57,621 nt of DNA, taken from Croceivirga sp. Its GTDB lineage: Bacteria; Bacteroidota; Bacteroidia; Flavobacteriales; Flavobacteriaceae. The notes beneath the pieces were generated by a model. The model was given only the letters and a program-made list of their open reading frames with translations. It had not been told where the DNA came from and did no database searches. How positions within the stretch are numbered: position 1 is the first letter of the stretch; every line of letters begins with the position of its first letter. The translations under genes and the position numbers were made by a program. The DNA lies in contig JANQSA010000011.1 of the NCBI GenBank assembly GCA_028284285.1, positions 1-57,621 of the forward strand. Direction: 5' to 3'. Positions 2-40,432 of the stretch are shown piece by piece.

Positions 2-649
2 ATTGGCGTAGAGAATCCTCAATTTCTAACCGTAGTGGGTGTCATTAAAGATTTTCATTATGAATCCCTTAGACGGGATATTGGGGCATTAAGTTTGACC
101 ATAGGAAATTCAACGGGGGCTATGGCGGTAAAGCTAAATACCGGCAACTTTTCTTCAGCAATTACCGCAATTGAGAGTATATGGAATACTGTTGCACCAG
201 GGCAGCCTTTTAATTACCGCTTCATGGATGATGCCTTTAACAGCACCTATGAAGCCGACCAAAACCTGGGAAGAATCTTTGTCGCTTTCACGATATTATC
301 CATTTTTATTGCTTGTCTGGGGCTTTTTGGGTTGGCTGCCTTCAATGCCGAAAAAAGGATAAAGGAAATTGGCGTACGCAAGGTACTGGGGGCAACTGTG
401 GGTCAAATTACGTTTAGGCTAACCAAAGACTTTTTGAAGTTGGTGGGTATTGCTATTCTGATTTCCGTACCGGTGGGTTGGTTTGTTATGAACAAATGGC
501 TGGAAGACTTTTCGTACCGCATAGAGATCAATGGGTGGATCTTTCTGTTGGCTGCGGTTATGGCCATTGCCGTTGCCATACTCACAGTAAGCTATCAAAG
601 TATTAAAGCGGCTATTGCAGATCCGGTAAAAAGTTTACGCACGGAGTAA
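2..649 (+). CDS. P1: MacB/FtsX-type ABC permease, C-terminal part only (cut by window edge)
   Basis: The reading frame is open from base 2, so the gene begins before the window; 215 residues are visible. They cover the end of the second periplasmic domain (GVIKDFHYES), three helices of the last FtsX unit and the tail DPVKSLRTE. The cytoplasmic coupling segment reads KEIGVRKVLGAT after the helix ending CLGLFGLAAF, the typical FtsX-family signature. It is the nearest visible relative of P2: both have the stretch IWNTVAPGQPF and very similar last 126 residues. It shows that the permease array extends upstream of this window. The 28-nt gap to P2 ends in GTCATG. The substrate cannot be told from sequence. 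Confidence 0.93.
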   Translation: MGVENPQFLTVVGVIKDFHYESLRRDIGALSLTIGNSTGAMAVKLNTGNFSSAITAIESIWNTVAPGQPFNYRFMDDAFNSTYEADQNLGRIFVAFTILSIFIACLGLFGLAAFNAEKRIKEIGVRKVLGATVGQITFRLTKDFLKLVGIAILISVPVGWFVMNKWLEDFSYRIEINGWIFLLAAVMAIAVAILTVSYQSIKAAIADPVKSLRTE

Positions 650-677
650 ATCATCAAATCAATCAAGAATCAATGTC

Positions 678-3113
678 ATGTTCAAAAACCATCTAAAAAC
701 TGCCTGGAGAAGCCTAAAAAAGCAATCCTTTTTTACCTTGCTCAATACCTTCGGACTTGCCATCGGCATGGTCGGAGGTTTACTGATTTCACTGTATATC
801 CATGATGAGCTGAGCTATGACACCATGTTTGCCGATGCCGACCGTATACACCGCATCAATGCAGATATCAAGTTTGGCGGAGAAGATCGCAAATTTGCAG
901 TTTCGCCGGCTCCTATGGCTGAGACTGTTGACCGCGATTTTTCCGAAGTTGAGCTAACCACACGATTTCGTACAAGGGGTAGCATGCTTGTCAGAAAAGC
1001 AGATACCGAAGCTAACGTAAAAGAAATACAATCCACTTTTGTTGACTCCACCTTCTTTGAAATGTTTGACGTGGCGCTTTTGGTTGGCGATGTTAAGACC
1101 GCTCTAAAATCTCCGAACACCCTGGTTTTGACCAAATCAGCGGCTGAAAAACATTTTGGTATTCTAGAAGCTTTAGGCCAGGAACTACTTCTCAACAATA
1201 CGGAAACCTATACGGTTACCGGGGTAATAGAAGATTTCCCTAAAAATTCATTCCTAAGGGATTACTCTGTTTTCATGGCTATGGCAAGTTATGATGATTC
1301 CAGAGTGGTGAACTGGGCCAGTAACAATTACAATACGTTTATCAAACTCATCCCGTCCGCACGCGTAGAAGACTTACAAGCTCCGCTACGCGCTTTTTTG
1401 GGGAGATACGTAATTCCCGGGGTACAGGAATTTATGCCAGGCATTACCGAAGAACAGTTCAAAGCAGCCGGAAACCATTTAATCTATAGTACCATTCCGT
1501 TAACCGATATACACCTGAAATCTGACCGGGTGGCCGAAATGAGTGCTAATAATACAATTCAAAGTATCTACATACTTTCTTTTATCGCCTTATTTCTAAT
1601 TGTATTGGCCTGCGTGAACTTTATGAATTTGAGTACCGCCTATTCTCTAAAAAGAGCTAAAGAAGTAGGCATACGAAAAACATTGGGTTCCAACAAGGCG
1701 TCACTCATCCGACAGTTTTTGATTGAGTCCGGTTTGGTTTCTTTTGGTTCACTTTTAGTAGCGCTGATCCTGGCCATATTGGTTTTGCCCTATTTCAATG
1801 ATTTGGCAGATAAGGAGATTGCCATGCCTTATGCAAATCCTCTTTTTTGGTTGATTTTAATGGCTGCAGGAGTCGTTTTGGCACTTTTTTCAGGAAGTTA
1901 TCCGGCGTTTTTTATGTCAAAATTCATTCCGATAAAAGTATTAAAGGGAGCCAACGGGAACAGTTTGGAAGGTGAAAAAATTCGAAACGGTCTGGTCATA
2001 TTTCAATTTGCGATTTCCGTTTTCTTGATTATCGGCACATTGGTCGTTTACAGGCAATTGCAATACATCCAGAATAAAGACCTTGGTTTTTCCAAAGATC
2101 AGGTATTGGTTGTCGATGATGTTTTTACCATCGGAGATCGCATGACTTCTTTCAAAGAAGAAGTAAAAAAACTAGGGTTTGTCCACAATGCCACCCTTAG
2201 CAGTTATTTTCCAACACCTTCAAACAGGTCCGACAGTGTTTTTGCTCCTGAGGAAGGTGCCACAAATCAAGAGAACGCCTTGAGTATGCAGACCTGGGGC
2301 GTTGACCATGATTATGTATCCACCATGGATCTGGAGATTATTGCCGGGAGGAATTTTGACCGTGCCTATAAAAATGATTCCACAAGTATCATCATCAACG
2401 AATCCGCCGTTGCCACCATAGGGGTTTCTCCTGAAGATGTAGTGGGCAAGCGCTATACACCGGATTTGGGTGAGGAAGAGCCCGAATATTTTACGATCAT
2501 AGGAGTGGTAAAGAACTTTCACTTTTCCCCTTTCAAGGAAGAGATAGAAGCCTTGAGCCTCCGTTTAAGCGCTTTTGCGGGTTCCATGGCGATAAGGCTA
2601 GAGACAGACGATTATTCAAATGCCATAACAAGTATTGAAGGAATTTGGAACACCGTTGCTCCCGGTCAACCCTTTGATTATTATTTTATGGAAGATTCCT
2701 TTAATACTACATACAAATCCGAGCAACGTTTGGGTCGCATCTTTATCATATTTACTACCCTTTCTATTCTAATCGCCTGCCTTGGATTATTCGGATTAGC
2801 CGCCTTTAATGCTGAAAAGCGCACCAAGGAAATAGGTGTACGAAAGGTATTGGGGGCAAGTGTTAGTCAAATTTCATATCGCCTTACCATGGACTTTATC
2901 AAGTTGGTTGGTATAGGTATACTCATTTCTTTGCCCATAGGCTGGTACGCCATGAACAAGTGGCTTGAAGATTTTTCGTATCGCATTGAGGTCAGTTGGT
3001 GGATGCTGGTAATTGCAGCCTCACTGGCCGTAGGCATTGCCATACTAACGGTAAGCTATCAAAGTATCAGGGCGGCAATAACAAATCCGGTCAAAAGTTT
3101 ACGCACAGAATAA
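678..3113 (+). CDS. P2: MacB/FtsX-type ABC permease, two fused halves (811 aa)
   Basis: Inner-membrane permease of the MacB/LolCE/FtsX superfamily, expected to need a partner ATPase. Predicted layout, typical for the whole array: helix 1 at about 21-43; periplasmic MacB-like domain 45-290; helices at 297-320, 352-372 and 389-410 with a cytoplasmic coupling loop (KEVGIRKTLGS, from 328); helix 437-458 starting the second half; second periplasmic domain 465-685; then helices near 687-708, 741-757 and 775-795 with the second coupling loop KEIGVRKVLGA from 717. The first half closes with PIKVLKG and the second with NPVKSLRTE, matching tails that support an internal duplication. MacB and FtsX proteins elsewhere usually carry only one such half. 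The start aligns with all paralogues (MFKNHLKTAWRSL). Closest neighbour is P1. Confidence 0.95.
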   Translation: MFKNHLKTAWRSLKKQSFFTLLNTFGLAIGMVGGLLISLYIHDELSYDTMFADADRIHRINADIKFGGEDRKFAVSPAPMAETVDRDFSEVELTTRFRTRGSMLVRKADTEANVKEIQSTFVDSTFFEMFDVALLVGDVKTALKSPNTLVLTKSAAEKHFGILEALGQELLLNNTETYTVTGVIEDFPKNSFLRDYSVFMAMASYDDSRVVNWASNNYNTFIKLIPSARVEDLQAPLRAFLGRYVIPGVQEFMPGITEEQFKAAGNHLIYSTIPLTDIHLKSDRVAEMSANNTIQSIYILSFIALFLIVLACVNFMNLSTAYSLKRAKEVGIRKTLGSNKASLIRQFLIESGLVSFGSLLVALILAILVLPYFNDLADKEIAMPYANPLFWLILMAAGVVLALFSGSYPAFFMSKFIPIKVLKGANGNSLEGEKIRNGLVIFQFAISVFLIIGTLVVYRQLQYIQNKDLGFSKDQVLVVDDVFTIGDRMTSFKEEVKKLGFVHNATLSSYFPTPSNRSDSVFAPEEGATNQENALSMQTWGVDHDYVSTMDLEIIAGRNFDRAYKNDSTSIIINESAVATIGVSPEDVVGKRYTPDLGEEEPEYFTIIGVVKNFHFSPFKEEIEALSLRLSAFAGSMAIRLETDDYSNAITSIEGIWNTVAPGQPFDYYFMEDSFNTTYKSEQRLGRIFIIFTTLSILIACLGLFGLAAFNAEKRTKEIGVRKVLGASVSQISYRLTMDFIKLVGIGILISLPIGWYAMNKWLEDFSYRIEVSWWMLVIAASLAVGIAILTVSYQSIRAAITNPVKSLRTE

Positions 3114-3130
3114 TCAAAAAACGAACGACA

Positions 3131-5566
3131 ATGTTTACTAATCAATTAAAGATCGCCTGGAGAAACCTGCTAAAAAACAAGGGGTTTACTGTTATCAATG
3201 TTTTGGGCTTGAGTACAGGAGTTGCCGCCTGTATGCTTATTGCTATCTACATTTTACACGAAAGCAGTTACGATAAAGCGGTAACTGATTCTTCTCAGAT
3301 CTATAGAATGCTCAATAGAGATATTCGTGAGGGAAAAATTGACGATGGTATTCATTTTTCGGCAAACACAGCCTCAACTGTGATGCACGATTTTCCGGAG
3401 GTGATCAACGCGGGCAGATTGAATGACAACGATTTATTCTATGGGGCGGGAAGTAACGAAATACGGATAGAAGGCCAGGAAATGCAACACCATGAAAAAG
3501 GGTTTACCTATGCAGACCAGGCCATTATTGACATCATGGATATTGACATGATCCACGGTGAAAAAAAATCCGCCTTATCAGAACCGTTTACCCTTGTAAT
3601 ATCCGAAACCATTTCAAAAAAGTACTTTGGCGATAGTAATCCCGTGGGCCGTTCTATCTATTTGAACGGCAATGATAATCAGCCTTTTCGCATTAATGGG
3701 GTAATGGAGGATTTTGCGAGTAACTCTCACATGAACTATGATTTTCTACTGACCCTGTCCGGTGTTGAGTTTGGGGAGGGCGAACAGACAAGATGGATAC
3801 AAAGTAATTACCCCACCTACATTCAGCTACAACCGGGTACGGATGTGGCGGCATTTCAAAAAAAACTATCCCATACCCTGATCTATGATTATCTAAAGCC
3901 TGCTTATGAAGCCGGTGGTTTTGTAATGCCCGATAACGCAGAAGAAAGCTTTAGTATTCAATTACAACCCCTTACGGATATTAATTTGTATTCTAAAAAC
4001 ATTGCCTTCGAGGCCGGTAAAAGGAATGATATTAAAGTGATTTCAATTTTTGGCATTGTCGCTGTTTTTATTTTGGTCATTGCCAGCATTAATTTTGTTA
4101 ACCTATCCACCGCCAAATCTGCCAATAGAGCGAAAGAAGTGGGCATCAAAAAGGTAGTAGGCTCATCAAAAAACCACCTCATAGGCCAGTTCCTTACCGA
4201 ATCCATCTTGGTAACGTTTATCGCATTCATGATAGGGACCCTCCTGTCTTTTCTCCTTATGCCATTGTTCCGTGAGATCTCCGGAAAAGCACTGCAAATT
4301 CCCTGGGCAAATCCCTGGTTCGCTGTGAGTATTCTAATAGGCACATTAGGGGTTGGCTTCATAGCCGGGTTGTATCCTTCTTTTTACCTATCAAGGTTTA
4401 AGCCCAGCGCTGTGCTCAAAGGCAAATTAGCCATAGGAAGTAAGTCAAGCAGTCTTCGAAGCGGTTTGGTCATTTTTCAATTTGCCATCTCCATTATCCT
4501 CATCATAGGAACATTGATCGTTAACCAACAATTGAATTTCATCCTTAATTCAAAAATCGGATTTGAGAAAGAACAGGTTGTTCAGCTATACGGCACCCAT
4601 ATGCTTGGGGATCGGATAGCTACTTTTAAAGAAGAACTAAAAGGGCTTAACGGGGTCAAAAGTGTTAGTGTTAGCGACTACCTCCCGCTGGAGAGCACTA
4701 AAAGAAATGGTAATGGTTTTGTGAATGAAGGACGCGACAACATCGATGAAACCGTTTTTGGTCAGGCATGGGTCATTGATGATGACTATCTGGAAACTTT
4801 GGGAATGAAGCTAGTAGAGGGAAGGAATTTTTCCGAAGAAAGGAGTACCGATGAACAGGCCACAATTATCAACCAGACCATGGCACAAAAATTAAACCTG
4901 GAAGATCCCCTTGGCAAAAGGATCTCCAGATACGGTGAAGTGTACGAAGTTATTGGTGTGGTTGAAGACTTCAACTTCAGCTCCTTTAAACAGAAAGTGG
5001 AGCCGCTCTCTTTTTTCCTGGGAACAAGCGCAACCATAACCTCAGTCAAAATAGAAACAGGGGATATTGGATCATTACTGTCTTCCATGGAAACCAAATG
5101 GAAAGCATTCATGCCCAACATGCAGATGCGCTATGCTTTTATGGATGATTCTTTCGCGGAGATGTACAACAATGTCAATCGGATCAAACAAATATTCATA
5201 TCGTTTGCTATCCTGGCCATTTTTGTGGCTTGTTTAGGGCTTTTTGCCTTATCCGCCTTTATGGTTGAGCAACGTAAAAAGGAAATCAGTATCCGAATGG
5301 TTTTGGGTGCTACATTACAGGGAATATACAAACTACTGACCTTCAATTTTATCAAGCTTATTCTGGTGGCAGCTGCCATAGCTACTCCTATCTCTTGGTA
5401 TATCATGAGCCGGTGGCTGGAGGATTATGCTTACAAAATAGATATCAGCTGGGAAGTGCTGACGGTGGGTTCCGCAATAGCAATAATCATTGCCGTTTTT
5501 ACTATAAGCTATCAGTCCGTATCCGCAGCATTGGCACAGCCTTACAGAAATTTAAACACTGAATAA
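3131..5566 (+). CDS. P3: MacB/FtsX-type ABC permease (811 aa)
   Basis: The frame is open further upstream, but the start at 3131 is chosen because it gives the array-wide N-terminus (MFTNQLKIAWRNLLKNKG) and avoids overlapping P2; the gap is 17 nt. Coupling loop 1 is KEVGIKKVVGS (about 335). Coupling loop 2 is KEISIRMVLGA (about 717), with Met where nearly all paralogues have Lys. The tail AQPYRNLNTE departs from the NPVKSLRTE consensus. The region before helix 2 (KNIAFEAGKRND) belongs to none of the recognisable subgroups. The junction sequence TAATCAAAAAAC after P2 recurs after this gene. Role is as for P2: a membrane permease half-pair with unknown substrate. Confidence 0.94.
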   Translation: MFTNQLKIAWRNLLKNKGFTVINVLGLSTGVAACMLIAIYILHESSYDKAVTDSSQIYRMLNRDIREGKIDDGIHFSANTASTVMHDFPEVINAGRLNDNDLFYGAGSNEIRIEGQEMQHHEKGFTYADQAIIDIMDIDMIHGEKKSALSEPFTLVISETISKKYFGDSNPVGRSIYLNGNDNQPFRINGVMEDFASNSHMNYDFLLTLSGVEFGEGEQTRWIQSNYPTYIQLQPGTDVAAFQKKLSHTLIYDYLKPAYEAGGFVMPDNAEESFSIQLQPLTDINLYSKNIAFEAGKRNDIKVISIFGIVAVFILVIASINFVNLSTAKSANRAKEVGIKKVVGSSKNHLIGQFLTESILVTFIAFMIGTLLSFLLMPLFREISGKALQIPWANPWFAVSILIGTLGVGFIAGLYPSFYLSRFKPSAVLKGKLAIGSKSSSLRSGLVIFQFAISIILIIGTLIVNQQLNFILNSKIGFEKEQVVQLYGTHMLGDRIATFKEELKGLNGVKSVSVSDYLPLESTKRNGNGFVNEGRDNIDETVFGQAWVIDDDYLETLGMKLVEGRNFSEERSTDEQATIINQTMAQKLNLEDPLGKRISRYGEVYEVIGVVEDFNFSSFKQKVEPLSFFLGTSATITSVKIETGDIGSLLSSMETKWKAFMPNMQMRYAFMDDSFAEMYNNVNRIKQIFISFAILAIFVACLGLFALSAFMVEQRKKEISIRMVLGATLQGIYKLLTFNFIKLILVAAAIATPISWYIMSRWLEDYAYKIDISWEVLTVGSAIAIIIAVFTISYQSVSAALAQPYRNLNTE

Positions 5567-5583
5567 TCAAAAAACAAACCGTC

Positions 5584-7983
5584 ATGTTTAAAAATTATTT
5601 AAAAATCGGTTGGAGGAACTTGCTAAAAAACAAGGCGTACTCTGCTATTAATATTGGAGGCCTTGCCTTAGGCATAGCCGTTACATTGATCATTGGGCTT
5701 TGGGTCCATGACGAGCTTACCTACAATAACTACTTTAAAAACAGGGATAAAATTGCGCAGGTATTTCAATCCCAAACTTTTAATGGGCAAACCGGTACCG
5801 GGCCTGCCATACCCTTGCCTCTGGAACCTGCCTTACGTGATGGGTACAATGATAACTTTAAGCACATCATGATGGCCTCATGGACACAATCCAGCTACAT
5901 CACCTACCAGGAAACGGACTTGTCCAGAACGGGAAACTATATGCAGCCCATGGCTCCAGAAGTATTGAATCTGGAAGTTATCAAAGGTGAAAAAGATGGA
6001 CTTAGGGATATTAATTCCATTATGCTCTCGGAATCCCTGGCAAATGCACTATTCAGCAATGAAGATCCTATAGGTAAAACCGTAGAAATTGGCAATCAAT
6101 ATGATCTGATGGTTACCGGTGTTTATAAGGATATTCCCTATAACAATGCTTTTCACGATACAGATTACATAATTCCATGGGATCATTACGTAACGAACAG
6201 GGAGTGGATACAGAACTCATTAGACAACTGGGGCAACAACTCATTTCAGCTTTTTGTTCAGATTGCAGATAACGCGAATATGCAGGCCGTTTCAGAAGCT
6301 ATTAGAAATGTGAAGAAAGATCTTAATGAGGACACCGTGGAATTTAACCCGCAGCTGTTCCTGTTACCTATGGAGGATTGGCATTTAAGGAACAATTTTG
6401 AAAATGGAAAACAGGTAGGTGGGCGCATTAGATATGTTTGGCTTTTTGGTATCATTGGTGCATTTGTATTGTTGTTGGCCTGTATCAACTTCATGAACTT
6501 AAGTACGGCGAGATCTGAGAAACGCGCCAAAGAAGTAGGTATACGAAAATCTATCGGCTCTCAGAGAGGTCAACTAATAAACCAGTTCTTGAGTGAGTCC
6601 TTTCTGATTGTTCTCTTCGCCTATTTTGTTGCCCTGTTCATTGTTTTGATATCACTGAACGGGTTTAATGAGCTGGCCCGAAAGGAAATTGAATTTCCCT
6701 GGTCCAGTCCGGTTTTTTGGGTGATCTCGCTATTCCTTATTTTATTTACAGCACTCCTGGCAGGTAGTTACCCGGCACTCTATTTATCTTCTTTCAAGCC
6801 CGTGGCAGTCTTAAAAGGAACCTTTCAATCCGGAAAATATTCGGGTTTGCCCAGAAAAATTCTGGTAGTGCTTCAATTCACGGTTTCTGTAGCCTTTATC
6901 ATAGGTACGGTAATTGTGATGCAACAAATCAACTATGCAAAAAACAGACCTGTAGGGTATGACAAAGAAGGATTGATCCAGGTCCCCACTTTTAGCCAGG
7001 ATTTTAATGGAAAAACGGATCTTATGCGAAGCGAGTTTTTGAACTCGGGGGCCGTGGTTTCTATGGCAACTTCAAGCAGCCCAACCACCCGGATATGGTC
7101 CAACAGGAGCGGTTTTACCTGGGAGGGAAAACCGGATGGCTTTCAAGAAGATCTGGCCTGGACGGAGGTGTCGCCGGAATATGCCAAAACCCTTAACTTA
7201 AAGATTGTGGAAGGTAGGGACTTCTCCCGTGATTTTGCTTCCGATTCTTTAGGGGTTTTGATCAATGAAACCGCCAAAAGTTACCTGGGTCTGGAAAATC
7301 CGGTAGGGATGTTACTCAAAGATTCCGACGAGGAAGATCCGGACCCCCCAATGAAGATCATTGGTGTAGTCCAGGACATGATTGCACAGTCTCCTTACGA
7401 GCCGGTTAAACAAGGCGTGTACGTATATGATCGTTTTGAAAACTTTAGCTATTACAATTTAAGATTAAATCCCAACCAAAGTGCCAGTCAAAACCTTGCT
7501 ACAGTTGAGCGGGTGTTCAAGGAGCATTTTCCTGATGTTCCTTTTGAATATCAATTTGTGGATGAGGAATACGGTGAAAAATTTGCTGCCGAAGAGCGCA
7601 TTGGAAGCCTGTCCGGCATCTTCACTGCCCTTGCCATTTTAATCAGTTGTCTTGGATTATTTGGTTTGACTTCCTTTGTGGCTGAGCAGCGTACCAAAGA
7701 AATTGGGGTGCGAAAGGTGTTGGGTGCCACAGTGTTCAACGTCTGGAACATGCTTTCCAAAGACTTCCTTAGGCTGGTAACCATCTCGTGTTTTATCGCT
7801 ATTCCTATTTCCTATTATATCATGAATGGATGGCTACAGGACTATCCGTACAGGGTGATTCTGGAATGGTGGATTTTTGTATTGGCTGTAGTAGGGGCAA
7901 TGGGAATTACAGTCCTTACCGTAAGTTTTCAGGCTATTCGGGCTGCCCGGCAAAATCCGGTGAAGAGTTTGCGTACGGAATAA
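5584..7983 (+). CDS. P4: MacB/FtsX-type ABC permease (799 aa), sister of P9
   Basis: It starts 17 nt after P3 with MFKNYLKIGWRNLLKNKAYS. Coupling loop 1 is KEVGIRKSIGS (about 315), loop 2 KEIGVRKVLGA (705), tail NPVKSLRTE. Before helix 2 it carries NNFENGKQVGGRIRYVWLFG, the signature of a subgroup also containing P8, P9, P14 and P15. By eye it is much closer to P9, five genes downstream, than to its neighbours: both share GLALGIAV/GLAVGMAV, the FKHI-MASW segment, the PWDHYVT/PWERYIT region, and SSPTTRIWSN versus SAPTTEIWSN in the second periplasmic domain. Its last 26 coding bases begin a 34-bp stretch repeated exactly at the end of P5. Confidence 0.95.
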   Translation: MFKNYLKIGWRNLLKNKAYSAINIGGLALGIAVTLIIGLWVHDELTYNNYFKNRDKIAQVFQSQTFNGQTGTGPAIPLPLEPALRDGYNDNFKHIMMASWTQSSYITYQETDLSRTGNYMQPMAPEVLNLEVIKGEKDGLRDINSIMLSESLANALFSNEDPIGKTVEIGNQYDLMVTGVYKDIPYNNAFHDTDYIIPWDHYVTNREWIQNSLDNWGNNSFQLFVQIADNANMQAVSEAIRNVKKDLNEDTVEFNPQLFLLPMEDWHLRNNFENGKQVGGRIRYVWLFGIIGAFVLLLACINFMNLSTARSEKRAKEVGIRKSIGSQRGQLINQFLSESFLIVLFAYFVALFIVLISLNGFNELARKEIEFPWSSPVFWVISLFLILFTALLAGSYPALYLSSFKPVAVLKGTFQSGKYSGLPRKILVVLQFTVSVAFIIGTVIVMQQINYAKNRPVGYDKEGLIQVPTFSQDFNGKTDLMRSEFLNSGAVVSMATSSSPTTRIWSNRSGFTWEGKPDGFQEDLAWTEVSPEYAKTLNLKIVEGRDFSRDFASDSLGVLINETAKSYLGLENPVGMLLKDSDEEDPDPPMKIIGVVQDMIAQSPYEPVKQGVYVYDRFENFSYYNLRLNPNQSASQNLATVERVFKEHFPDVPFEYQFVDEEYGEKFAAEERIGSLSGIFTALAILISCLGLFGLTSFVAEQRTKEIGVRKVLGATVFNVWNMLSKDFLRLVTISCFIAIPISYYIMNGWLQDYPYRVILEWWIFVLAVVGAMGITVLTVSFQAIRAARQNPVKSLRTE

Positions 7984-7987: not shown

Positions 7988-8012
7988 TCATTTTAATCAA
8001 AAAGCGTCAGTT

Positions 8013-10407: not shown

Positions 10408-10426
10408 ACAACCTGTATTGAGCACA

Positions 10427-10463
10427 CCTGCCTGTCGGTTTACATGCCTCTGGCGCAGGCAGG
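10427..10463. repeat. GC-rich palindrome between P5 and P6
   Basis: CCTGCCTG (10427-10434) and CAGGCAGG (10456-10463) form perfect 8-bp arms around a 21-nt loop. It lies in one of the few long gaps of the array. The CCTGCC/GGCAGG core recurs at 39720-39738 and 48481-48502, which suggests a dispersed REP-like family. No T-run follows, so a classic terminator is unlikely. Confidence 0.75.
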
Positions 10464-10489
10464 ATCAAAACATCAAAACACAAGCAATC

Positions 10490-15318: not shown

Positions 15319-15338
15319 TCTTATGAAAATAGAAAATC

Positions 15339-20135: not shown

Positions 20136-20180
20136 AAGTGTAAATATATTTTACATGTTTCGTAAAAATGTTTTACACTT
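20136..20180. promoter_or_regulatory. 45-bp imperfect palindrome in the P9-P10 gap
   Basis: AAGTGTAAA (20136-20144) and TTTACACTT (20172-20180) are perfect 9-bp outer arms; the inner part is also partly symmetric (TTTTACATG facing CGTAAAAATG). The gap 20119-20300 is the longest of the array. It may be an operator, a processing hairpin or an AT-rich attenuator; there is no clean T-run. Related AGTGT/ACACT inverted repeats occur at 44628-44641 and 48547-48583. No TTG/TAnnTTTG promoter was found nearby. Confidence 0.6.
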
Positions 20181-20300
20181 AAAGTAGAACAAAAACTATA
20201 ACTATATGTAAAACAATATGTTGTGTTTTGGCATGATAATCGAACTCATTTTTTGGTGTTTGCCCAATGCGTTAAAGCGGATATCAAAACGATAGCTATC

Positions 20301-32440: not shown

Positions 32441-32459
32441 ACCTCTTGTAACTCAAATC

Positions 32460-34826
32460 ATGTTCAAACAGCACATCAAATTATTCTTCAGAAATATTAA
32501 ACGGTCCAAAACGGTCTTCTTCGTTAACATCATTGGCCTTGTTGGCGGATTAACCTCAGCCATATTGCTATTCCTCTGGGCAACCCATCAGTATCAGATG
32601 AACCGGTTTGATGAAAAGGATAGTGAAAGGCATGTTCAGGTGATGGTAAATTATATTGCTCCACAGACCATTGAAACGGAAGATATCACTCCCGGGCCGT
32701 TGACGGCAGCTATGGCGGCTGAAATTCCTGAAATTGATTATGCCATTCCTGTGGTTGCCCCACGCTCTTTTTACAACGGTGTGCTGCTCGCGGGCAATAA
32801 CAGTATTAAGGTAAAACCCCAATTTGTGGGCGAGGGTTATTTTAATGTTTTCGGATGTGACTTTCTTGCGGGCGACAAGCAAACCGCACTTGATGAAAAA
32901 CAGTCCATTGTCATTTCAAAGGAAATGGCTTTGGGTCTTTTTAACAGTGTGGAAACTGCCATAGGGGAGGACATTGTTTTTAAGAACGAATATTTTGACG
33001 GCGCATATGTGGTTTCAGGTGTTTTTGTTCACCCGGGCAACGCTTCCTTCAACTATACTGCCCTATTGAATTTTGAACGTTTTCTGGAAGGGAGGCCCAA
33101 CTTAAAAAAATGGAACAATGGGGGCGTTCAGGCCCATTTGGTGCTTAAACCGGAAGTATCCCTGGAACAATTCAATTCAAAAATTGAACATTATCTGAAT
33201 ACCAAATTAGAGGGTTTAAATACTTCGTTGTTCGCACAAAAATATGCTGACCGTTACCTAAATAATACTTTTGAAAATGGCCAACCTGTTGCCGGTCGAA
33301 TAAAGTATGTGCGTCTCTTTTCAATTATTGGATTCCTTATACTGGCCCTGGCCTGTATCAATTTTTCTAATTTATCCACTGCCAACGCCTCCGGACGAAT
33401 AAAGGAGATTGGTATTAAAAAGACCGCAGGGGTACAACGTAGGACCCTGGTGGTCCAATTCATGACCGAAGCAATTTTAATGTCGTTATTGGCTTTGTTG
33501 GTGGCAATTCCAATGGTAAAACTTTTGCTGCCGGTGTACAACCAAATCATCGGTCTTCAGTTAAAATTTGACTTCAGTTATGAAATCATCTTCGGAAGTA
33601 TCGCCATTACCCTGATAACAGGATGTATTTCGGGCATTTATCCTGCTTTATTCCTTTCAAAACAAACCCCTTCCCAGTCTTTAAAAGGAAAAATCAATGT
33701 CGGGCCGGGTCAACATCTGTTCAGAAAGGGTCTGGTCGTTTTCCAATTTTCCATATCCATCTTTTTATTGATAGCGGTTTTAACCATTTCAAAGCAAATT
33801 GCCTACATGCAAGACAAAGAACTGGGCTATAATCGAGAACAAGTTTTGTCTTTTCCTATAGAAGGGAACTTGGATGAAAGCTATGAGACCTTTTTGAATG
33901 AAGCTCAACAACTTGCTGGGGTAACCCATGCCTCTCATATGTGGGGAGACCTTCCGGGAAGGCTAGGTTCAAGTAATGGATATCAATGGGCTAACCAGGA
34001 AAAAGAAGAGCTCAAAATTCGCTTTTTTGACATTGTTGGAGGAACTAACGTCATAGAACTTCTCGGGCTGGAAATTATTAAAGGTCGTTCATTTATGGAA
34101 AACACTGAAGCAGATGGTAATGGTATCATATTTAATGAAACGGCCATCAAAACCATGGGATATGAAAATGACCCTATTGGTGCTCAGGTATATTTTGAAG
34201 GGAACAAGACTATTGTTGGTGTTGTAAAAGACTTTCATTTTGAATCTATGTACGAGCCCATTAAACCCTTATTTTTTGAATTGGGCAAAGGAGATAATAT
34301 TGTATTGAAATTGAACGCTAAAGACCACCTTACAACCCTTGATCAAATAGAAACCCTTTATCATACGTTTAATCCGGAATTTCCTTTTGAATACCGCTTT
34401 ATAGACGAGAACTTCCAGGAGCTTTACCGTTCTGAACAAATCATATCATTATTATCGAAGTACTTTGCGGCCCTGGCCATTATTATTTCATGTTTAGGAC
34501 TATTCGGCCTGGCCATGTTCACGGCGTTTCAAAAACGCAAAGAAATAGGTATACGAAAAGTGCTGGGCCAAACCTCCGGACAGGTGGTGTTAATGCTCAC
34601 CAAGGACTTTGCCATACTTGTGATAATAGCAATTGTTATAGCAGTTCCATTGGGCTATTTATTGACGAACGATTGGCTTTCCAATTTTGCCTATCATATT
34701 CCTTTAAAAGGATCTTATTTTCTCTGGTCCGGATTAATAGCACTTGCTATAGCTGTATTGACGGTAGGGAGCCAAGCGCTGATGGCGGCCAATACAAGTC
34801 CCGTAAAAAGTTTACAGACAGAATAA
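32460..34826 (+). CDS. P15: MacB/FtsX-type ABC permease (788 aa)
   Basis: The start at 32460 (CAAATCATG) is chosen over an in-frame start at 32397 that overlaps P14; the gap is 19 nt. Loop 1 is KEIGIKKTAGV (about 315), loop 2 KEIGIRKVLGQT (694), tail SPVKSLQTE. Signature NTFENGQPVAGRIKYVRLFS before helix 2. P14 and P15 share RYLNNTFENG/NYLNGRFENG, the GQT loop and YFA-LAI-ISCLGLFGLA in helix 6, so they are a sister pair. Confidence 0.94.
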   Translation: MFKQHIKLFFRNIKRSKTVFFVNIIGLVGGLTSAILLFLWATHQYQMNRFDEKDSERHVQVMVNYIAPQTIETEDITPGPLTAAMAAEIPEIDYAIPVVAPRSFYNGVLLAGNNSIKVKPQFVGEGYFNVFGCDFLAGDKQTALDEKQSIVISKEMALGLFNSVETAIGEDIVFKNEYFDGAYVVSGVFVHPGNASFNYTALLNFERFLEGRPNLKKWNNGGVQAHLVLKPEVSLEQFNSKIEHYLNTKLEGLNTSLFAQKYADRYLNNTFENGQPVAGRIKYVRLFSIIGFLILALACINFSNLSTANASGRIKEIGIKKTAGVQRRTLVVQFMTEAILMSLLALLVAIPMVKLLLPVYNQIIGLQLKFDFSYEIIFGSIAITLITGCISGIYPALFLSKQTPSQSLKGKINVGPGQHLFRKGLVVFQFSISIFLLIAVLTISKQIAYMQDKELGYNREQVLSFPIEGNLDESYETFLNEAQQLAGVTHASHMWGDLPGRLGSSNGYQWANQEKEELKIRFFDIVGGTNVIELLGLEIIKGRSFMENTEADGNGIIFNETAIKTMGYENDPIGAQVYFEGNKTIVGVVKDFHFESMYEPIKPLFFELGKGDNIVLKLNAKDHLTTLDQIETLYHTFNPEFPFEYRFIDENFQELYRSEQIISLLSKYFAALAIIISCLGLFGLAMFTAFQKRKEIGIRKVLGQTSGQVVLMLTKDFAILVIIAIVIAVPLGYLLTNDWLSNFAYHIPLKGSYFLWSGLIALAIAVLTVGSQALMAANTSPVKSLQTE

Positions 34827-34846
34827 CAGGTATTAAAAGGGTTACT

Positions 34847-37222
34847 ATGCTTTATACATACATCAAAATAGGGTTCCGAAACTTAACGAAAAACCGCTTT
34901 TTTTCGTTTATCAATTTGATTGGTATGACCTTAGGTCTTAGTTGTTTTATACTCATTGCATTTTATATCCAAAACGAGCTCAGCTATGATATGCAACACG
35001 AAAATGCGGATCGTATTTATAGGGTATCTCAAATACAAAGCGGTAATGAATTTCAGGGAACCGACCGATTTGCAGTAGCTCCCAGACCATTAGCCCCTAC
35101 CCTCAAAGCACAATTCCCAGAGGTTGAGGCTGCAACCACCCTTACTCTTGACGAAACCCTTTTAAAGATCAAAGATCAACCGTTTTACGCCCAAGGATTG
35201 TTTTCCGATCCGTATTTATTTGATGTCTTTACCTATCCCTTAATAGTAGGTATGGCAAAAGAAGCGCTAAAAGATCCCAAAAGCGTTATTATCACTACAT
35301 CATTGGCAAAAAAATATTTTGGAGAAGCATCTCCCTTGGGAAAAACGATACTGCTTGAACAAGATCGTCTTTTAACGGTAAAAGGTGTTGTAGAGGATCT
35401 CCCCAAGAATCAACACTTCTCATTTGACTATATTACTTCTTATGAGAATTACAGATACTATGACGAAAGTAGTTCCTGGAGCAGTAATAACTATCATGCC
35501 TATATTGTATTACCAGAAGGATATGATTATCATTTGCTTAATGAAAAAATGGACGCTCTTGATGTTTACACCACCCCTGCTTATGCCCAGTTTCCTTTTA
35601 CCGCAGAATATTTTTTACAACCTCTTAAGGAAATACGTCTGTATTCTAATATTAACTTTGAACTTGGACCCGTTAGTGATATCAAGTATATCTATTTGGC
35701 TGCCTCCATCGCAATTATTATTCTTTTATTGGCTTTTATTAATTATACCAATCTTGCTATTGCGAGAACATCGTACCGTTCAAAAGAAGTCGGATTACAA
35801 AAGGTACTTGGTGCCAAAAAAAGACAGGTAATAAATCAATTTATGGCAGAGTCCTTTCTTTTAACGTCATGCAGTTTTATATTGGCGTTAGCTCTGGCTT
35901 TTCTATTTTTACCAGGTTTCAATGCCCTAATAGGTAGCGAAATCCCACTTTCCTTTGATGACAAAGCTCCAGTGGTTTTTATCATTATTGTAATCGGTAT
36001 AGTTCTTGGCGTGCTTTCAGGAATTTATCCTGCCCTCTTGTCATCTGCCATTAACCCTGCTAAAGCCCTAAAAGGAAAATGGTTAAATAGTAAAACCGGT
36101 ATTTCATTGCGTAACACTCTCGTGGTTGGCCAATTTGCGGCATCGGTGGTGCTTGCTATTTCCAGCATAGTTGTCTATCAGCAACTGAATTATGTAAACA
36201 AAAAAAAGCTCGGATATAACAAAGACCAAATAGTATATGTCCATTATAAACAGACTGATTTCTATGCCAAAAATAACGTGATCAAAGAGGCATTATTACA
36301 ACACCCTCAAATCAAAAAAGTAACACTCACTAATAATATCCCCACTAACACCGAAGACCAAACCATAATAGACCAATGGGAAGGGAATACAGGAGACCAA
36401 AATATTCAGATATATAGAAATTATGTAGATCCGGATTATCTGGACGTTTTCGAAATGGAACTAGAGGCAGGTAGAAATTTTTCATCGCAATTTCCAACGG
36501 ATTCAACAGAGAGCATTTTACTGAATGAAGCCGCGGTAAAAAAACTAGGGTGGAGCACAGCGGTAGGTAAAACCTTTGGCGGTAGAAAAGTAATAGGTAT
36601 GGTGAAGGACTTTCATTTTCAACCCTTTAAACTTAAGATTGAACCAGTAGTTATTGGGTTTAGATCAAAACTTCGCAGTTATTATAGCAACTACATTGCC
36701 ATCAAATTGGAATTGAATGATTTGGAAAATACTTTAAATCATGTCAAAGGCGTATTAAATACTCATATCCCGGGGATTCCTTTCGATCAAAGATTTATGA
36801 ACGAATCCTATGATCAACTTTATAGAACAGAAAAGCAATTTGGGCAAGTTTTCAACACCTTTACCCTTGTAGCCCTTTTTATTGCATGTATAGGCCTGTT
36901 AGGTCTTGTTACCCAGAAAGTGAGCGAGCGCTCCAAGGAAATAGGGGTTAGAAAAGTATTAGGTGCATCTATTGCTAATATCGTCCTACTATTTACAAAG
37001 GATTTTATGCGATTGGTATTACTTGCAGTAATCATTGCTATTCCAATAGGTTGGTGGGGAATGGAAAAATGGCTGCAGGACTTTGCCTATAGAATTGAAA
37101 TGAATTGGACTGTTTTTGTCCTTGCAGCCTTACTTGGGTTTGGGGTTGCATTTATTACCGTAGGCGCTCAGACATTAACTACAGCCAATAAAAACCCAAT
37201 ACAAACTTTAAGAGAGGAGTAA
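34847..37222 (+). CDS. P16: MacB/FtsX-type ABC permease (791 aa)
   Basis: A 20-nt gap follows P15. The frame is open far back into P15, but only 34847 gives the family N-terminus (MLYTYIKIGFRNLTKNRFFS). Loop 1 is KEVGLQKVLGA (about 313), with Gln at the usual Arg/Lys. Loop 2 is KEIGVRKVLGA (697), preceded by CIGLLGLVTQKVSERS instead of GLFGLAAF. Tail NPIQTLREE. By eye it is more AT-rich than P4-P9. Second periplasmic domain ends GMVKDFHFQPFKLKIEPVV. Confidence 0.94.
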   Translation: MLYTYIKIGFRNLTKNRFFSFINLIGMTLGLSCFILIAFYIQNELSYDMQHENADRIYRVSQIQSGNEFQGTDRFAVAPRPLAPTLKAQFPEVEAATTLTLDETLLKIKDQPFYAQGLFSDPYLFDVFTYPLIVGMAKEALKDPKSVIITTSLAKKYFGEASPLGKTILLEQDRLLTVKGVVEDLPKNQHFSFDYITSYENYRYYDESSSWSSNNYHAYIVLPEGYDYHLLNEKMDALDVYTTPAYAQFPFTAEYFLQPLKEIRLYSNINFELGPVSDIKYIYLAASIAIIILLLAFINYTNLAIARTSYRSKEVGLQKVLGAKKRQVINQFMAESFLLTSCSFILALALAFLFLPGFNALIGSEIPLSFDDKAPVVFIIIVIGIVLGVLSGIYPALLSSAINPAKALKGKWLNSKTGISLRNTLVVGQFAASVVLAISSIVVYQQLNYVNKKKLGYNKDQIVYVHYKQTDFYAKNNVIKEALLQHPQIKKVTLTNNIPTNTEDQTIIDQWEGNTGDQNIQIYRNYVDPDYLDVFEMELEAGRNFSSQFPTDSTESILLNEAAVKKLGWSTAVGKTFGGRKVIGMVKDFHFQPFKLKIEPVVIGFRSKLRSYYSNYIAIKLELNDLENTLNHVKGVLNTHIPGIPFDQRFMNESYDQLYRTEKQFGQVFNTFTLVALFIACIGLLGLVTQKVSERSKEIGVRKVLGASIANIVLLFTKDFMRLVLLAVIIAIPIGWWGMEKWLQDFAYRIEMNWTVFVLAALLGFGVAFITVGAQTLTTANKNPIQTLREE

Positions 37223-37234
37223 ATTAAGAAGAGC

Positions 37235-39706
37235 ATGCTAAAAAACTATCTAAAAGTAGCCTTAAGAAATATCCTGAAACATAGACTGTTTTCAGTGATT
37301 AATATTCTGGGATTATCGGTAAGCATGGCAACTTGTTTGTTGATTATTCTTTTGGTCTATAGCCAAAAAACGATGGATGGCTTTCATGAAAAGCGGGATA
37401 GGATAGTGCGTGTTTTAAGCCTTGAGGATAGTCGTTCTTTTGCATCTACACCATTGCCTTTAGGCGAAATGCTTTCAGAAAACTACCCCCATTTAGTTGA
37501 AGATGCAGTACAGATAAAGTCCAGTTTTGTAGGTGGTGATATTATTTATGGTGAAAACAGAATTCCATTAGCCGGGCGCTATGCAGATGACCGCTTCTTT
37601 GCTGTTTTTGACTTTAACTTGATTGCCGGAGATATTGAAACCGTTTTGAAAGCACCCTTCTCTATTGTACTTACCAAGAAATCGGCAGAAAAACTGTTTG
37701 GGGAAACCAATCCCATTGGTAAGTCCGTAAAACTGAATGATATCGGTTTGAATACCATGGGTATTGATCTCATTCCTACCCAAAACAAAGAAACCTTGTT
37801 GGGCGATTTTGTGGTTACCGGTGTCACAGATAATACCTCGCCTTCACATATTCAATTTGATTTTTTGGTGTCCATGTCCACCCTTCCTTCCTTGGTAAAA
37901 CAAGGAAAAAGTGATATAACTTTTGATGATTGGGAAAACTATTTTGATGCCTATCTCTATCTCCTGCTAAAAGAGAGGGTTTCCGAAAAGGATTTACAAC
38001 CTATCCTAAACGACGTATCCTCAACAAAATATAGCGGTCTTGAGGAAGTTAATATTGCGTTTGCCGTTGAAAAACTATCCCAAATCAACTTAAGCAGGTT
38101 TCATAATAATGACATAAGTTTAAGAATGCCGGTAGAGGTTATCTATGTGCTTTCCTTTTTAGGTTTCATTGTTCTTTTTTCAGCCTGTTTTAACTATGTG
38201 AACCTATCTTTTGCCCGATCCCTTACCCGGTCTAAGGAAATTGGGGTTAGAAAAACGATGGGCGCCGCCCGTTATCAGGTCTTTGTACAGTTTATATTGG
38301 AATCCATCCTTGTCGGGCTGTTGTCCCTGGCCGTCGCCGTTGGATTACTCCAGGTGTTAAGCCGAATGTTCCTGGGCTTATGGATGAATCAATTCTTGCT
38401 ATTGGATTTTAGATTTGATATGGTCCTATTCCTCGTGTTCATTTTGTTTAGTATTATTGTTGGATTGCTGGCAGGTGTACTTCCCGCCTCTTTTTTATCT
38501 TCCTTTTCACCAATAAAGACCCTACGTAATGCTAAGGGAATACTTCTGGAAAAAGGTAAGGGCATACATCTTAGAAAAGGATTGGTGGTACTGCAATTCT
38601 GTGCCTCCCTCCTTTTTATCACCACTACACTGTTGATTTTTTCACAACTGAACTACTTAATGGAAAAAGAATATGGTTTTGACCAAAACCATATCATCAA
38701 CCTTAAGTTGCAGGGTGTAGATTATGGAACTTTAGCTGGTGAGCTTTCTAAAAACCCGTCCATTCAGAGCATTTCCGCAAGTTCTTTTGTTCCTGGTACT
38801 GGTGGATATAGCGGTGATGTGCTGATCAAAAACAGGTTCTCCGAAGGTGAAACTGATTTAACATCAAGTTATATTGCCGTAGATCAGAGCTTTATTCCCA
38901 ATTTAAAAATTGAGCTTAAAGCCGGAACCAATTTTCCGTCACAGATGCCAGGGTATAATGAAGAATATGTCATCCTAAATGAAGCGGCGGCAAAGTTGTT
39001 GGGTCATAATATGACACCAGAAGAAGTGGTGGGTGAAACGATCCTGATAGGAGAAGATCACACCCCGGTAAAGGTAATTGGAATAACCGCCAATTTTATA
39101 TATGACCTCTTAACGGAAGCAGAGCCTACCGATCCCCTGGTCATACGCTACCTACCACATGAATTTGCCTATTTGAATATCCGCTATGCTCCGACAGCTA
39201 GCACAAAATCTATCATTTCATATGCAGAACAGAAATGGAAGGGGATGGATAAGGTGCATTCCCTTAAGTACCATCTTTATGAAGATGAGTTAAAAGGGAC
39301 CAATGCCATCTTTTCGGATATCATTTACATCTTGGGGTTTATTTCCTTTCTAACCATTACCATATCAACACTTGGCCTTTTGGGGATAGCGGCCTTTACC
39401 GCTGAATCAAAAAGGAAAGAAATAAGTATTCGAAAGGTACACGGGGCACAGACAAAAAACATTACCTATCTATTATCCAAGGGCTTTTTGCCGCTGTTTA
39501 TAATTGCTGTTCTGGTAACCGTACCCCTGAGTTATTTCGTAAATGCACTTTGGCTTGAAGAGTTCGCTTATAAAGTCAACTTTGGCCCATGGATTTTTAT
39601 TGTAGGGGTTGGAATAATGTTTATAACCGGTTTCGGGACCATTGTGTCACAGACCCTCTCTGTTGCTAACGATAATAATTTGTTGAAAAGACTAAAAGAA
39701 GAATAA
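37235..39706 (+). CDS. P17: MacB/FtsX-type ABC permease (823 aa, longest, divergent tail)
   Basis: The last permease before the ATPase, 12 nt after P16. Loop 1 is KEIGVRKTMGA (about 334), loop 2 KEISIRKVHGA (728). The C-terminus ends NNLLKRLKEE, so NPVKSLRTE is essentially lost while the basic/acidic ending remains. The N-terminus MLKNYLKVALRNILKHRLFS is typical. Extra residues lie in the first periplasmic domain. The end of the second periplasmic domain (GITANFIYDLLTEAEP) has lost the GVVKDFHF motif. It may be the founding partner of the adjacent ATPase or simply the oldest diverged copy. Confidence 0.93.
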   Translation: MLKNYLKVALRNILKHRLFSVINILGLSVSMATCLLIILLVYSQKTMDGFHEKRDRIVRVLSLEDSRSFASTPLPLGEMLSENYPHLVEDAVQIKSSFVGGDIIYGENRIPLAGRYADDRFFAVFDFNLIAGDIETVLKAPFSIVLTKKSAEKLFGETNPIGKSVKLNDIGLNTMGIDLIPTQNKETLLGDFVVTGVTDNTSPSHIQFDFLVSMSTLPSLVKQGKSDITFDDWENYFDAYLYLLLKERVSEKDLQPILNDVSSTKYSGLEEVNIAFAVEKLSQINLSRFHNNDISLRMPVEVIYVLSFLGFIVLFSACFNYVNLSFARSLTRSKEIGVRKTMGAARYQVFVQFILESILVGLLSLAVAVGLLQVLSRMFLGLWMNQFLLLDFRFDMVLFLVFILFSIIVGLLAGVLPASFLSSFSPIKTLRNAKGILLEKGKGIHLRKGLVVLQFCASLLFITTTLLIFSQLNYLMEKEYGFDQNHIINLKLQGVDYGTLAGELSKNPSIQSISASSFVPGTGGYSGDVLIKNRFSEGETDLTSSYIAVDQSFIPNLKIELKAGTNFPSQMPGYNEEYVILNEAAAKLLGHNMTPEEVVGETILIGEDHTPVKVIGITANFIYDLLTEAEPTDPLVIRYLPHEFAYLNIRYAPTASTKSIISYAEQKWKGMDKVHSLKYHLYEDELKGTNAIFSDIIYILGFISFLTITISTLGLLGIAAFTAESKRKEISIRKVHGAQTKNITYLLSKGFLPLFIIAVLVTVPLSYFVNALWLEEFAYKVNFGPWIFIVGVGIMFITGFGTIVSQTLSVANDNNLLKRLKEE

Positions 39707-39719
39707 AATAAACGATTTT

Positions 39720-39738
39720 CTGCCTGAAAGTCAGGCAG
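39720..39738. repeat. Short hairpin between P17 and the ATPase gene
   Basis: CTGCCTGA and TCAGGCAG form perfect 8-bp arms around a 3-nt loop, in the 60-nt gap before the ATPase start. It has the CCTG/CAGG core of the other palindromes. No T-run follows, so it may shield or process the transcript upstream of the ATPase rather than end it. Confidence 0.75.
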
Positions 39739-39766
39739 ATGCTCTTATACTAATTAAATTAAAACT

Positions 39767-40432
39767 ATGTTATTGGAATTAAAAAACATCTTTAAATGGG
39801 TCAACTCGGGTGGCCAACGTATCTTTTTATTAAAAGACATTAACCTATCTGTGGAGGAAGGCGAATTTATTTCCGTAATGGGTCCCTCAGGTTCCGGAAA
39901 ATCCACCCTGCTAAACGTTATTGGGATGTTGGACACCTTTGATGAAGGAGAATATCATTTTTTGGACGAATCCGTCCATACCTTAAAGGAAAAATACCGC
40001 TCCAATCTCTATAAGGAATACATTGGTTTTGTCTTTCAGTCCTATCATTTGCTGGATGATCTTACCGTTTATGAAAATTTGGAAATGCCACTTCTTTATA
40101 AGAAATACAAGGGTACGGAACGCAAGGCTATGGTGGGCGATATGCTGGACCGATTTAGTATCGTAGGGAAAAAAGACCTGTTTCCGGCCCAACTAAGCGG
40201 CGGCCAGCAACAATTGGTTGGTGTAGCCAGGGCCTTGATTGGAAAACCAAAATTGATCCTGGCAGACGAGCCTACCGGTAATCTAAATTCGCAGCAAAGT
40301 GAGGAAATAATGGGCTTGTTTAAAAGATTGAATGAAGAAGACAATGTAACCATTATCCAGGTGACACACTCTGAAAAAAACGCGGCTTATGGGTCGCGAA
40401 TCATCAACTTGTTGGATGGCCGTATGATTTAA
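39767..40432 (+). CDS. ABC transporter ATP-binding protein, LolD/MacB type (221 aa)
   Basis: Cytoplasmic ATPase expected to power the upstream permeases. Walker A GPSGSGKST is at 39-47, Q-loop Gln at 91 (FVFQSYHLL), signature LSGGQ at 143-147, Walker B LILADE at 163-168, and the H-loop His at 201 (VTHSE). Length and the Q-loop context fit the LolD/FtsE/MacB subfamily. After the signature the sequence is QQLVGVARAL where the family usually has QQRVAIARAL; Leu150 replaces the normally conserved Arg. It is the only ATPase gene in the visible cluster and lies last. It converges on the FAD oxidoreductase gene with only 3 nt between the stops and no terminator hairpin in the gap. Confidence 0.96.
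   Translation: MLLELKNIFKWVNSGGQRIFLLKDINLSVEEGEFISVMGPSGSGKSTLLNVIGMLDTFDEGEYHFLDESVHTLKEKYRSNLYKEYIGFVFQSYHLLDDLTVYENLEMPLLYKKYKGTERKAMVGDMLDRFSIVGKKDLFPAQLSGGQQQLVGVARALIGKPKLILADEPTGNLNSQQSEEIMGLFKRLNEEDNVTIIQVTHSEKNAAYGSRIINLLDGRMI

What the first reader, a model, noticed from the sequence alone, without database searches (positions are those of the whole stretch)
2..40432. At least seventeen intact fused FtsX/MacB permeases in a row with a single ATPase gene
Seen: seventeen consecutive same-strand permease genes (one partial), about 40 kb, with no broken copy and no other gene between them, followed by one LolD-type ATPase. Known: MacB/LolCDE/FtsX systems usually have one or two permeases per ATPase, and Bacteroidota often carry a few such permeases in tandem. 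Inference: either one ATPase can dock with many alternative permeases, forming a family of transport or mechanotransmission machines with different periplasmic domains, or the cluster is under selection for diversity. Retention of all frames argues that each copy is used.
Basis: partly seen in the sequence, partly recalled or inferred. Interest (0 to 1): 0.85.

Follow-up and report, generated by a model that had tools for sequence, protein, structure and literature searches.

The report
Many swappable permeases, one shared ATPase pair
A marine bacterium carries a long row of different membrane-pump bodies that appear to share one pair of ATP-burning motors, one exit channel and one genetic switch, so the cell may change what it pumps by swapping bodies.

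Summary
The row is real: 16 complete and one partial 769-823-aa MacB/FtsX-type permeases, all intact, then an ATPase. The 'single ATPase' is a contig-edge effect: the contig overlapping the window start by 85 identical bases carries outer-membrane channel, adaptor, a second ATPase, a GIN-domain protein and two permease genes, so 18 permeases lie between two ATPases. The layout recurs across Bacteroidota with 2-27 permeases, single-contig genomes included. Permeases are old paralogs (median 31% identity), under purifying selection wherever measurable (dN/dS 0.03-0.13), and turn over as one-gene cassettes. Their predicted ATPase-contact segments are conserved most, periplasmic domains least. The terminal ATPase lacks the D-loop aspartate (31 of 31), the other has it (32 of 32), suggesting an asymmetric heterodimer. 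A 39-bp operator followed by a sigma54-like promoter occurs at six places in the 4.8-Mb genome (up to two mismatches), all before the array operon, inside the array, or before scattered permeases with no ATPase in the stretch read. Best reading: a sigma54-controlled modular exporter in which one motor/adaptor/channel set serves many exchangeable permeases. Complex formation, transport and substrates are untested.

The parts
2..649 (+). permease 2 of the array, C-terminal part; N-terminal part lies on contig C75 (85-bp exact overlap)
678..3113 (+). permease 3 (811 aa), MacB_PCD x2 + FtsX x2
3131..5566 (+). permease 4 (811 aa)
5584..7983 (+). permease 5 (799 aa); reciprocal best matches in all seven other array-bearing genomes of the genus; structure model made
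8013..10403 (+). permease 6 (796 aa)
10490..12871 (+). permease 7 (793 aa)
12904..15318 (+). permease 8 (804 aa)
15339..17699 (+). permease 9 (786 aa)
17722..20118 (+). permease 10 (798 aa)
20139..20177 (.). internal 39-bp paired-dyad operator (2 mismatches) in the 182-bp spacer before permease 11
20229..20243 (+). sigma54-like element (TGGCAT...), 51 bp after the internal operator
20301..22742 (+). permease 11 (813 aa)
22755..25064 (+). permease 12 (769 aa)
25076..27499 (+). permease 13 (807 aa)
27596..29983 (+). permease 14 (795 aa)
30065..32440 (+). permease 15 (791 aa)
32460..34826 (+). permease 16 (788 aa)
34847..37222 (+). permease 17 (791 aa)
37235..39706 (+). permease 18 (823 aa); its orthologs are also last in the arrays of G009, G008, G005, G004, G007 and G023
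39767..40432 (+). terminal ATPase (ATPT), D-loop NLN instead of NLD, LSGGQQQL instead of LSGGQQQR; partner ATPase (ATP1), adaptor, OMF and two-component genes lie upstream on contig C75

Best explanation
This is a modular type VII ABC exporter regulon. One operon supplies a fixed chassis: a TolC-type outer-membrane channel, a DarC/MacA-type adaptor, and two dedicated ATPases (ATP1 upstream, ATPT at the 3' end). The permeases are interchangeable bodies: each single chain is two MacB-like 4-helix units fused, with two coupling segments, so it can take two ATPase subunits. I infer that ATP1 and ATPT bind as an asymmetric heterodimer whichever permease is present, and that the permease's two periplasmic domains decide which periplasmic or membrane substrate is pushed through adaptor and channel. 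An NtrC-type two-component system with sigma54 switches on the operon, internal array promoters and scattered permease genes together. The permease set is refreshed by gain, loss and exchange of single-gene cassettes. Shown by sequence: gene layout, conservation pattern, ATPase residues, operator sites, purifying selection, turnover. Inferred: shared docking, heterodimer, regulator-operator match, tripartite export, substrates.
For: Layout: 16 of 75 Flavobacteriaceae genomes have ATPT; besides the own, 15 of 15 have ATP1 upstream on the same strand and contig, 7-68 kb away (own joined by overlap); 3-27 permeases between them in 15 stretches read, 2-16 in six further Bacteroidota stretches. Docking: mean information over 203 permeases is 2.9 and 3.3 bits in the two coupling segments and 3.1 in the C-tail, against 1.6 in both periplasmic domains (segment borders set by me); MacB's coupling helix between TM2 and TM3 and its C-terminal minor coupling helix contact the ATPase (PMC5985334, passages); YbbP, one chain with two YbbA, contacts them through TM2-3 and TM8-9 (PMC12646458, passages) and is the best fold match (E 4e-21, TM 0.50). 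Two motors: D-loop Asp absent in 31 of 31 ATPT and present in 32 of 32 ATP1 not chosen by a motif; ATP1 and ATPT genes are adjacent in G134 and G122 and about 600 bp apart in G199. Regulon: operator at 6 places in the own genome, all before permease genes or the array operon, reversed-pattern control 0; in the genus 34 sites, in 8 of 8 array genomes and 0 of 3 without, 32 of 34 before the operon or a permease, each of these 32 with TGG[CTA]A 51-53 or 63-65 bp further on. Selection. Turnover.
Against: No biochemistry: shared docking and heterodimer are inferences. Three single-permease operons have ATP1 but no ATPT (G002, G029, G078), so ATP1 must be able to work without ATPT there. Walker A, Walker B Glu and LSGGQ are intact in ATPT, so its site may be active; a D-loop Asp change is tolerated in some transporters or sites (PMC4242082, PMC7756269, passages). 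The own genome has other LolD/MacB-type ATPases, 34-41% identical to ATPT, which scattered permeases could use. In G168 no permease of this type was recognised in the 7.5 kb between ATP1 and ATPT, in G132 none upstream of ATPT, in G134 none in the 20 kb read; G182 and G102 have other gene orders. Two of 34 operator sites are not before permeases. Of nine scattered permeases with no ATPase in the stretch, three show no operator-like site upstream and a fourth only a 13-of-20 match. The 51-53-bp spacing class was seen after the fact: only 9 of 19 array sites met the first slot of 58-66 bp. Recent exchange (dS far below flanks) rests mainly on metagenome bins, probably of one sample; among isolate records only one pair looked convincing.
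Confidence: 0.62

Rival explanations
1. Shared motor, but two separate homodimers: ATP1 serves some permeases and ATPT others (or acts under another condition), with no heterodimer.
For: Single-permease operons have ATP1 alone; ATPT keeps Walker A, Walker B Glu and LSGGQ.
Against: Every genome with ATPT in the three searches also has ATP1 (16 of 16, 8 of 8, 25 of 25, own genome counted in each); the two altered ATPT elements (D-loop, residue after LSGGQQQ) would lie in one composite site of a heterodimer but in both sites of an ATPT homodimer (inference from PMC7756269 and PMC4242082 passages).
Confidence: 0.22
2. The permeases are not partners of these ATPases but independent mechanotransmission or ligand-binding membrane proteins (ADOP-like orphans) that were only gathered in one regulon, or they use other ATPases of the cell.
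For: Nine further permeases of this kind lie in eight stretches of the same genome without an ATPase; the best NCBIfam model is ADOP; other LolD-type ATPases exist.
Against: Coupling segments and C-tail are the most constrained parts in 203 proteins, unexpected without an ATPase; two ATPases bracket or accompany the permeases in the genomes with ATPT.
Confidence: 0.1
3. An ordinary large paralog family kept by tandem duplication without functional diversification (dosage).
For: Tandem order; near-identical spacers flank some cassettes.
Against: Paralogs in the own array are 25-63% identical, median 31, over 153 pairs; in the 22 stretches compared no within-genome pair exceeds 72%, apart from two ends of one contig-split gene in G008; dN/dS 0.026-0.127; orthologs shared across genera.
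Confidence: 0.06

Closest known systems
MacAB-TolC (type VII ABC tripartite efflux)
   Same: MacB_PCD and FtsX domains, adaptor, TolC-type channel, MacB-like ATPase
   Different: ATPases are separate proteins, two of them and of two fixed types; permease is a fused double unit; many permeases per chassis; sigma54-type two-component regulator beside the operon
Darobactin exporter DarBCD
   Same: closest curated models for adaptor (DarC, 191 bits, cutoff 450), ATP1 (DarD, 302, cutoff 375), ATPT (DarD, 235) and second for permeases
   Different: all below cutoff; one permease and one ATPase in Dar (recalled)
YbbAP-TesA
   Same: best solved fold match; one fused permease chain taking two ATPase subunits
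   Different: YbbP has an extra linking pair of TM helices and two copies of one ATPase; model and hydropathy of permease 5 give 8 TM helices
ADOP family permeases (TIGR03434)
   Same: best NCBIfam match of all eight complete permeases scanned, about 800 aa
   Different: 210-315 bits with cutoff 622; here flanked by ATPases, whereas ADOP genes are described as lacking them (recalled)
Group II ECF importers (recalled, not tested)
   Same: one shared energising module with a heterodimeric ATPase pair serving many substrate-binding membrane subunits, some in other loci
   Different: importers with unrelated membrane proteins; here an export-type family with periplasmic domains
Predicted sigma54 control of FtsX-like permeases, PMC12316311 (passages)
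   Same: COG0577 permeases reported as enriched for sigma54 promoters, Bacteroidia among the classes
   Different: the passages seen do not mention arrays, the paired-dyad operator, paired ATPases or scattered members of one regulon

Membership tests
Type VII ABC systems | FtsX-like and MacB_PCD domains in the permease, separate or fused LolD/MacB-type ATPase | tested here: met
   fold of permease 5 matches YbbP, MacB, LolCDE, BceAB
MacAB-TolC | ATPase fused N-terminally to a 4-TM permease, acting as homodimer | tested here: not met
   ATPases are separate proteins; permeases have two units; homodimerisation itself not testable
MacAB-TolC | adaptor and TolC-type channel | tested here: met
   HlyD_3 and OEP domains on C75, conserved layout
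ADOP (TIGR03434) | score above curated cutoff 622 | tested here: not met
   eight complete permeases give 210-315 bits, the partial one 101; the other complete copies were not scanned
ADOP (TIGR03434) | no ATPase gene adjacent (recalled) | tested here: not met
   ATPases at both ends
DarB/DarC/DarD | curated cutoffs 700/450/375 | tested here: not met
   at most 157, 191 and 302 bits
YbbAP | 10 TM helices with a linking pair | tested here: not met
   8 merged hydrophobic segments and 8 long membrane helices in permease 5; only this copy was modelled
Heterodimeric ABC with one altered site | two different ATPase subunits with an altered composite site | tested here: inconclusive
   residue pattern 31 of 31 versus 32 of 32, gene adjacency; no interaction data
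Heterodimeric ABC with one altered site | the two subunits physically pair | not testable with these tools
   needs co-purification or structure

The most novel reading that the evidence does not exclude
A plug-in exporter: a heterodimeric ATPase with one altered site, one adaptor and one channel are shared by dozens of exchangeable permeases, in an array and scattered through the genome, all under one sigma54 response regulator; the permease repertoire behaves as an expandable cassette array that species trade, setting which envelope compounds each can export.
Probability: 0.45. Interest if true: 0.87.

Novelty: new variant of a known kind. Interest (0 to 1): 0.76.

Why it matters
Shared-motor logic with many exchangeable membrane subunits is familiar from some importers (recalled), but I found no description of it for type VII exporters (listings; open-access library only, subscription papers and preprints not covered). 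If right, it gives a direct genetic handle (two ATPases, one regulator, a 39-bp operator) on large groups of 'orphan' permeases in Bacteroidota whose energy source and function are unknown, and a testable case of asymmetric ATPase pairing in the MacB family.

Tried and rejected
Recent tandem amplification: rejected (within-array median identity 31%). Relaxed or pseudogenised copies: rejected (all frames intact; dN/dS 0.026-0.127 in the 49 measurable of 60 ortholog pairs; 11 pairs had saturated dS, reciprocal pairs under 60% identity or under 500 aa were dropped before the count; pairs share genes and are not independent; own permeases 1, 4, 5, 9, 11, 12 and 17 got no value). Assembly artefact: rejected for the arrangement (G005 single contig), though the own left join is ambiguous between two sister bins. 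Exact conservation of array order: not found; order is only partly kept between G000 and G008. An isolate-based test of recent exchange (49 of 80 loci, taken as isolates by their titles; 189 pairs passed, the first 70 were computed, a larger version, timed out without output) gave one suggestive pair (L021/L022: flank dS 0.21-0.57 in 8 genes, one permease 0.03); the other pairs flagged low were near-identical or saturated, and many pairs show permeases as old as or older than flanks, so exchange is argued mainly from bins. A strict GG-N10-GC search found nothing in G023 although dyads and TGGCAC are there. Literature searches for tandem permease arrays in Flavobacteriaceae gave nothing on topic in their listings.
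Full report
What is in the window. The window is the first 57,621 bases of contig C38 of a 4.8-Mb, 82-contig genome; the nearest named records are Croceivirga, Flavobacteriaceae. It holds one partial and 16 complete permease genes of 769-823 aa, then an ATPase. All complete copies run ATG to stop without a break; spacers are 11-182 bp. PF12704 matches all 16 complete copies.

What lies upstream. The end of contig C75 equals the first 85 bases of the window. C75 carries, in array direction, an outer-membrane efflux protein, an HlyD-type adaptor, an ATPase (ATP1), a DUF2807/GIN protein, one complete permease and the start of the one cut by the window edge; a sigma54-activator response regulator and a histidine kinase point the other way. 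So the array is 18 permeases between two ATPases. The same 85-mer ends the corresponding contig of a sister genome (G008), so the contig pairing could be crossed, but both upstream contigs have the same gene content.

How general. In the genus, 8 of 11 genomes have the terminal ATPase (ATPT) and all 8 have ATP1; the two lie on one contig in five, on different contigs in three. In one genome from each of 75 Flavobacteriaceae genera (own included), 16 have ATPT at 72% or more identity; besides the own, 15 of 15 have ATP1 upstream on the same strand and contig, 7-68 kb away; six more genomes have ATP1-like hits only. Permeases between both ATPases in the 15 such stretches that I read: 3, 3, 4, 4, 4, 5, 5, 6, 10, 10, 13, 14, 16, 24 and 27. 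Three operons with one permease have ATP1 but no ATPT (G002, G029, G078). Across 118 genomes of the phylum, 25 including the own have ATPT-like hits at 59% or more; of the other 24, 17 have ATP1 upstream on the same contig and strand with space between, 3 have it next to ATPT, 2 in reverse order, 2 on another contig (my reading of the table). I read 14 of these 24: permeases lie between the two ATPases in six (2, 4, 8, 10, 11, 16); none was recognised between them in G168; the other seven have the adjacent or reverse orders or contig breaks.

What the permeases are. The nearest curated models are ADOP and DarB, both far below cutoff in the eight complete copies scanned. A model of permease 5 (pLDDT 83.7, pTM 0.76) matches YbbP best (E 4e-21, TM 0.50), then MacB, with LolE and BceB further down. 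It has eight membrane helices, two MacB-like units fused without the linking pair of YbbP. Over 203 permeases the two coupling segments (2.9 and 3.3 bits), the C-tail NPVKSLRTE (3.1) and the N-terminal helix (2.8) are conserved most, the two periplasmic domains least (1.6 each). In MacB the TM2-TM3 loop and a C-terminal helix contact the ATPase (PMC5985334, passages). Thus what varies is the part that would meet substrate and adaptor, what stays is the part that would meet the ATPase. That is inference from position, not a docking test.

Two ATPases of fixed type. ATP1 has GNLD in the D-loop, ATPT has GNLN, GNLH or GNLQ: in genomes not chosen by a motif, 20 + 12 of 32 ATP1 and 17 + 14 of 31 ATPT. 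ATP1 has LSGGQQQR, ATPT LSGGQQQ followed by L, V or I (12 of 12 and 14 of 14; 27 of 27 and 97 of 97, a set that includes loci found partly with a D-loop pattern). Walker A, the Walker B Glu and the LSGGQ core are intact in both. Both ATPT changes belong to the face that completes the partner's ATP site, so a heterodimer would have one altered and one standard site. D-loop Asp substitution uncouples TAP when it is in the active site and is tolerated in the degenerate site (PMC4242082, PMC7756269, passages). ATP1 and ATPT are adjacent genes in G134 and G122.

One regulon. Upstream of the operon, two 17-bp dyads TGT-N11-ACA 22 bp apart are followed by a TGGCA element with sigma54-like spacing; the regulator is of the sigma54-activator type and the genome has one sigma54. 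The 39-bp operator with up to two mismatches occurs at six places in the own genome, reversed control none: before the operon, in the 182-bp spacer before permease 11 (window 20139-20177), and before four scattered permeases on C14, C60 (cut by the contig end), C71 and C78. In the genus there are 34 sites, in 8 of 8 genomes with the array and 0 of 3 without: 8 main promoters, 11 in array spacers (11 of 11 between permeases), 15 elsewhere of which 13 have a permease start within 450 bp and 2 do not. In these 32, TGG[CTA]A follows at 63-65 bp (21 sites) or 51-53 bp (the 11 internal sites); the second spacing was noticed in the output, the first slot set beforehand was 58-66 bp; one nine-base slot contains it by chance in 5% of random places. 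Among 177 array spacers of up to 700 bp, single dyads occur in 10 of 28 of 75 bp or more and 0 of 149 shorter ones. Nine scattered permeases of 790-908 aa in eight stretches (L005-L012) have no ATP1/ATPT-like ATPase in the stretch read; five of the nine have operator-like sites with 16 or more of 20 positions, one a 13-of-20 match, three none. PMC12316311 (passages) had already predicted sigma54 control for FtsX-like permeases, Bacteroidia among the classes.

Evolution. Paralogs in the own array are 25-63% identical, median 31 (153 pairs); across the 22 stretches compared the closest within-genome pair is 72%, leaving aside one gene split over two contigs. Orthologs reach other genera. Depending on the cut, the eight array genomes of the genus hold 34-48 permease types of which one is in all eight. 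dN/dS is 0.026-0.127 in the 49 measurable of 60 pairs, which cover 11 of the 18 own permeases. Between G005 and G004 (flank dS 0.17) single permeases are present or absent as exact one-gene units, once between two near-identical 48-bp spacers. Between G000 and G008 or G006 flanking genes have median dS 1.6-1.7, yet permease 2 has 0.19 and 0.23 and permease 3 0.36; between G008 and G006 (flanks 0.42) some permeases are at 1.0-1.3 or saturated.

Conclusion. The most economical mechanism is a shared motor, adaptor and channel with many exchangeable permeases under one sigma54 switch. Transport direction is inferred from the adaptor and channel; substrates are unknown.

Noticed in passing
window 40436-44539 (-): Next to the array: an FAD-dependent oxidoreductase, biotin carboxylase, biotin carrier protein and a KAS III gene; in the seven other array genomes of the genus the biotin carboxylase (92-96% identical) also lies within a few kb of ATPT.
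   Followed up: partly
G005 15435-16781 versus G004 10432-11775 (oriented stretches): The outer-membrane channel is only 59% identical between two genomes whose neighbouring operon genes are 93-99% identical, so the channel may be swapped too.
   Followed up: no
L001 4328-5104 (-): A DUF2807/GIN-domain protein sits between ATP1 and the first permease, in some other genomes elsewhere in the array or before ATPT; role unknown.
   Followed up: partly
L129, L131, L132, L136, L158: In a subgroup the outer-membrane channel gene lies after the terminal ATPase instead of at the start of the operon.
   Followed up: partly
L159 (G168), L153 (G132), L140 (G134): ATP1 and/or ATPT present but no permease of this type recognised in the stretch.
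   Followed up: no
L179 site 3320, L180 site 3378: Two operator matches that are not before permeases; both overlap open frames and may be chance.
   Followed up: no
L001 12611-13597 (-): A further ABC ATPase (328 aa, 32% identical to ATPT) on C75 beyond the two-component genes; similar weak hits sit at the same side in several genus members.
   Followed up: no
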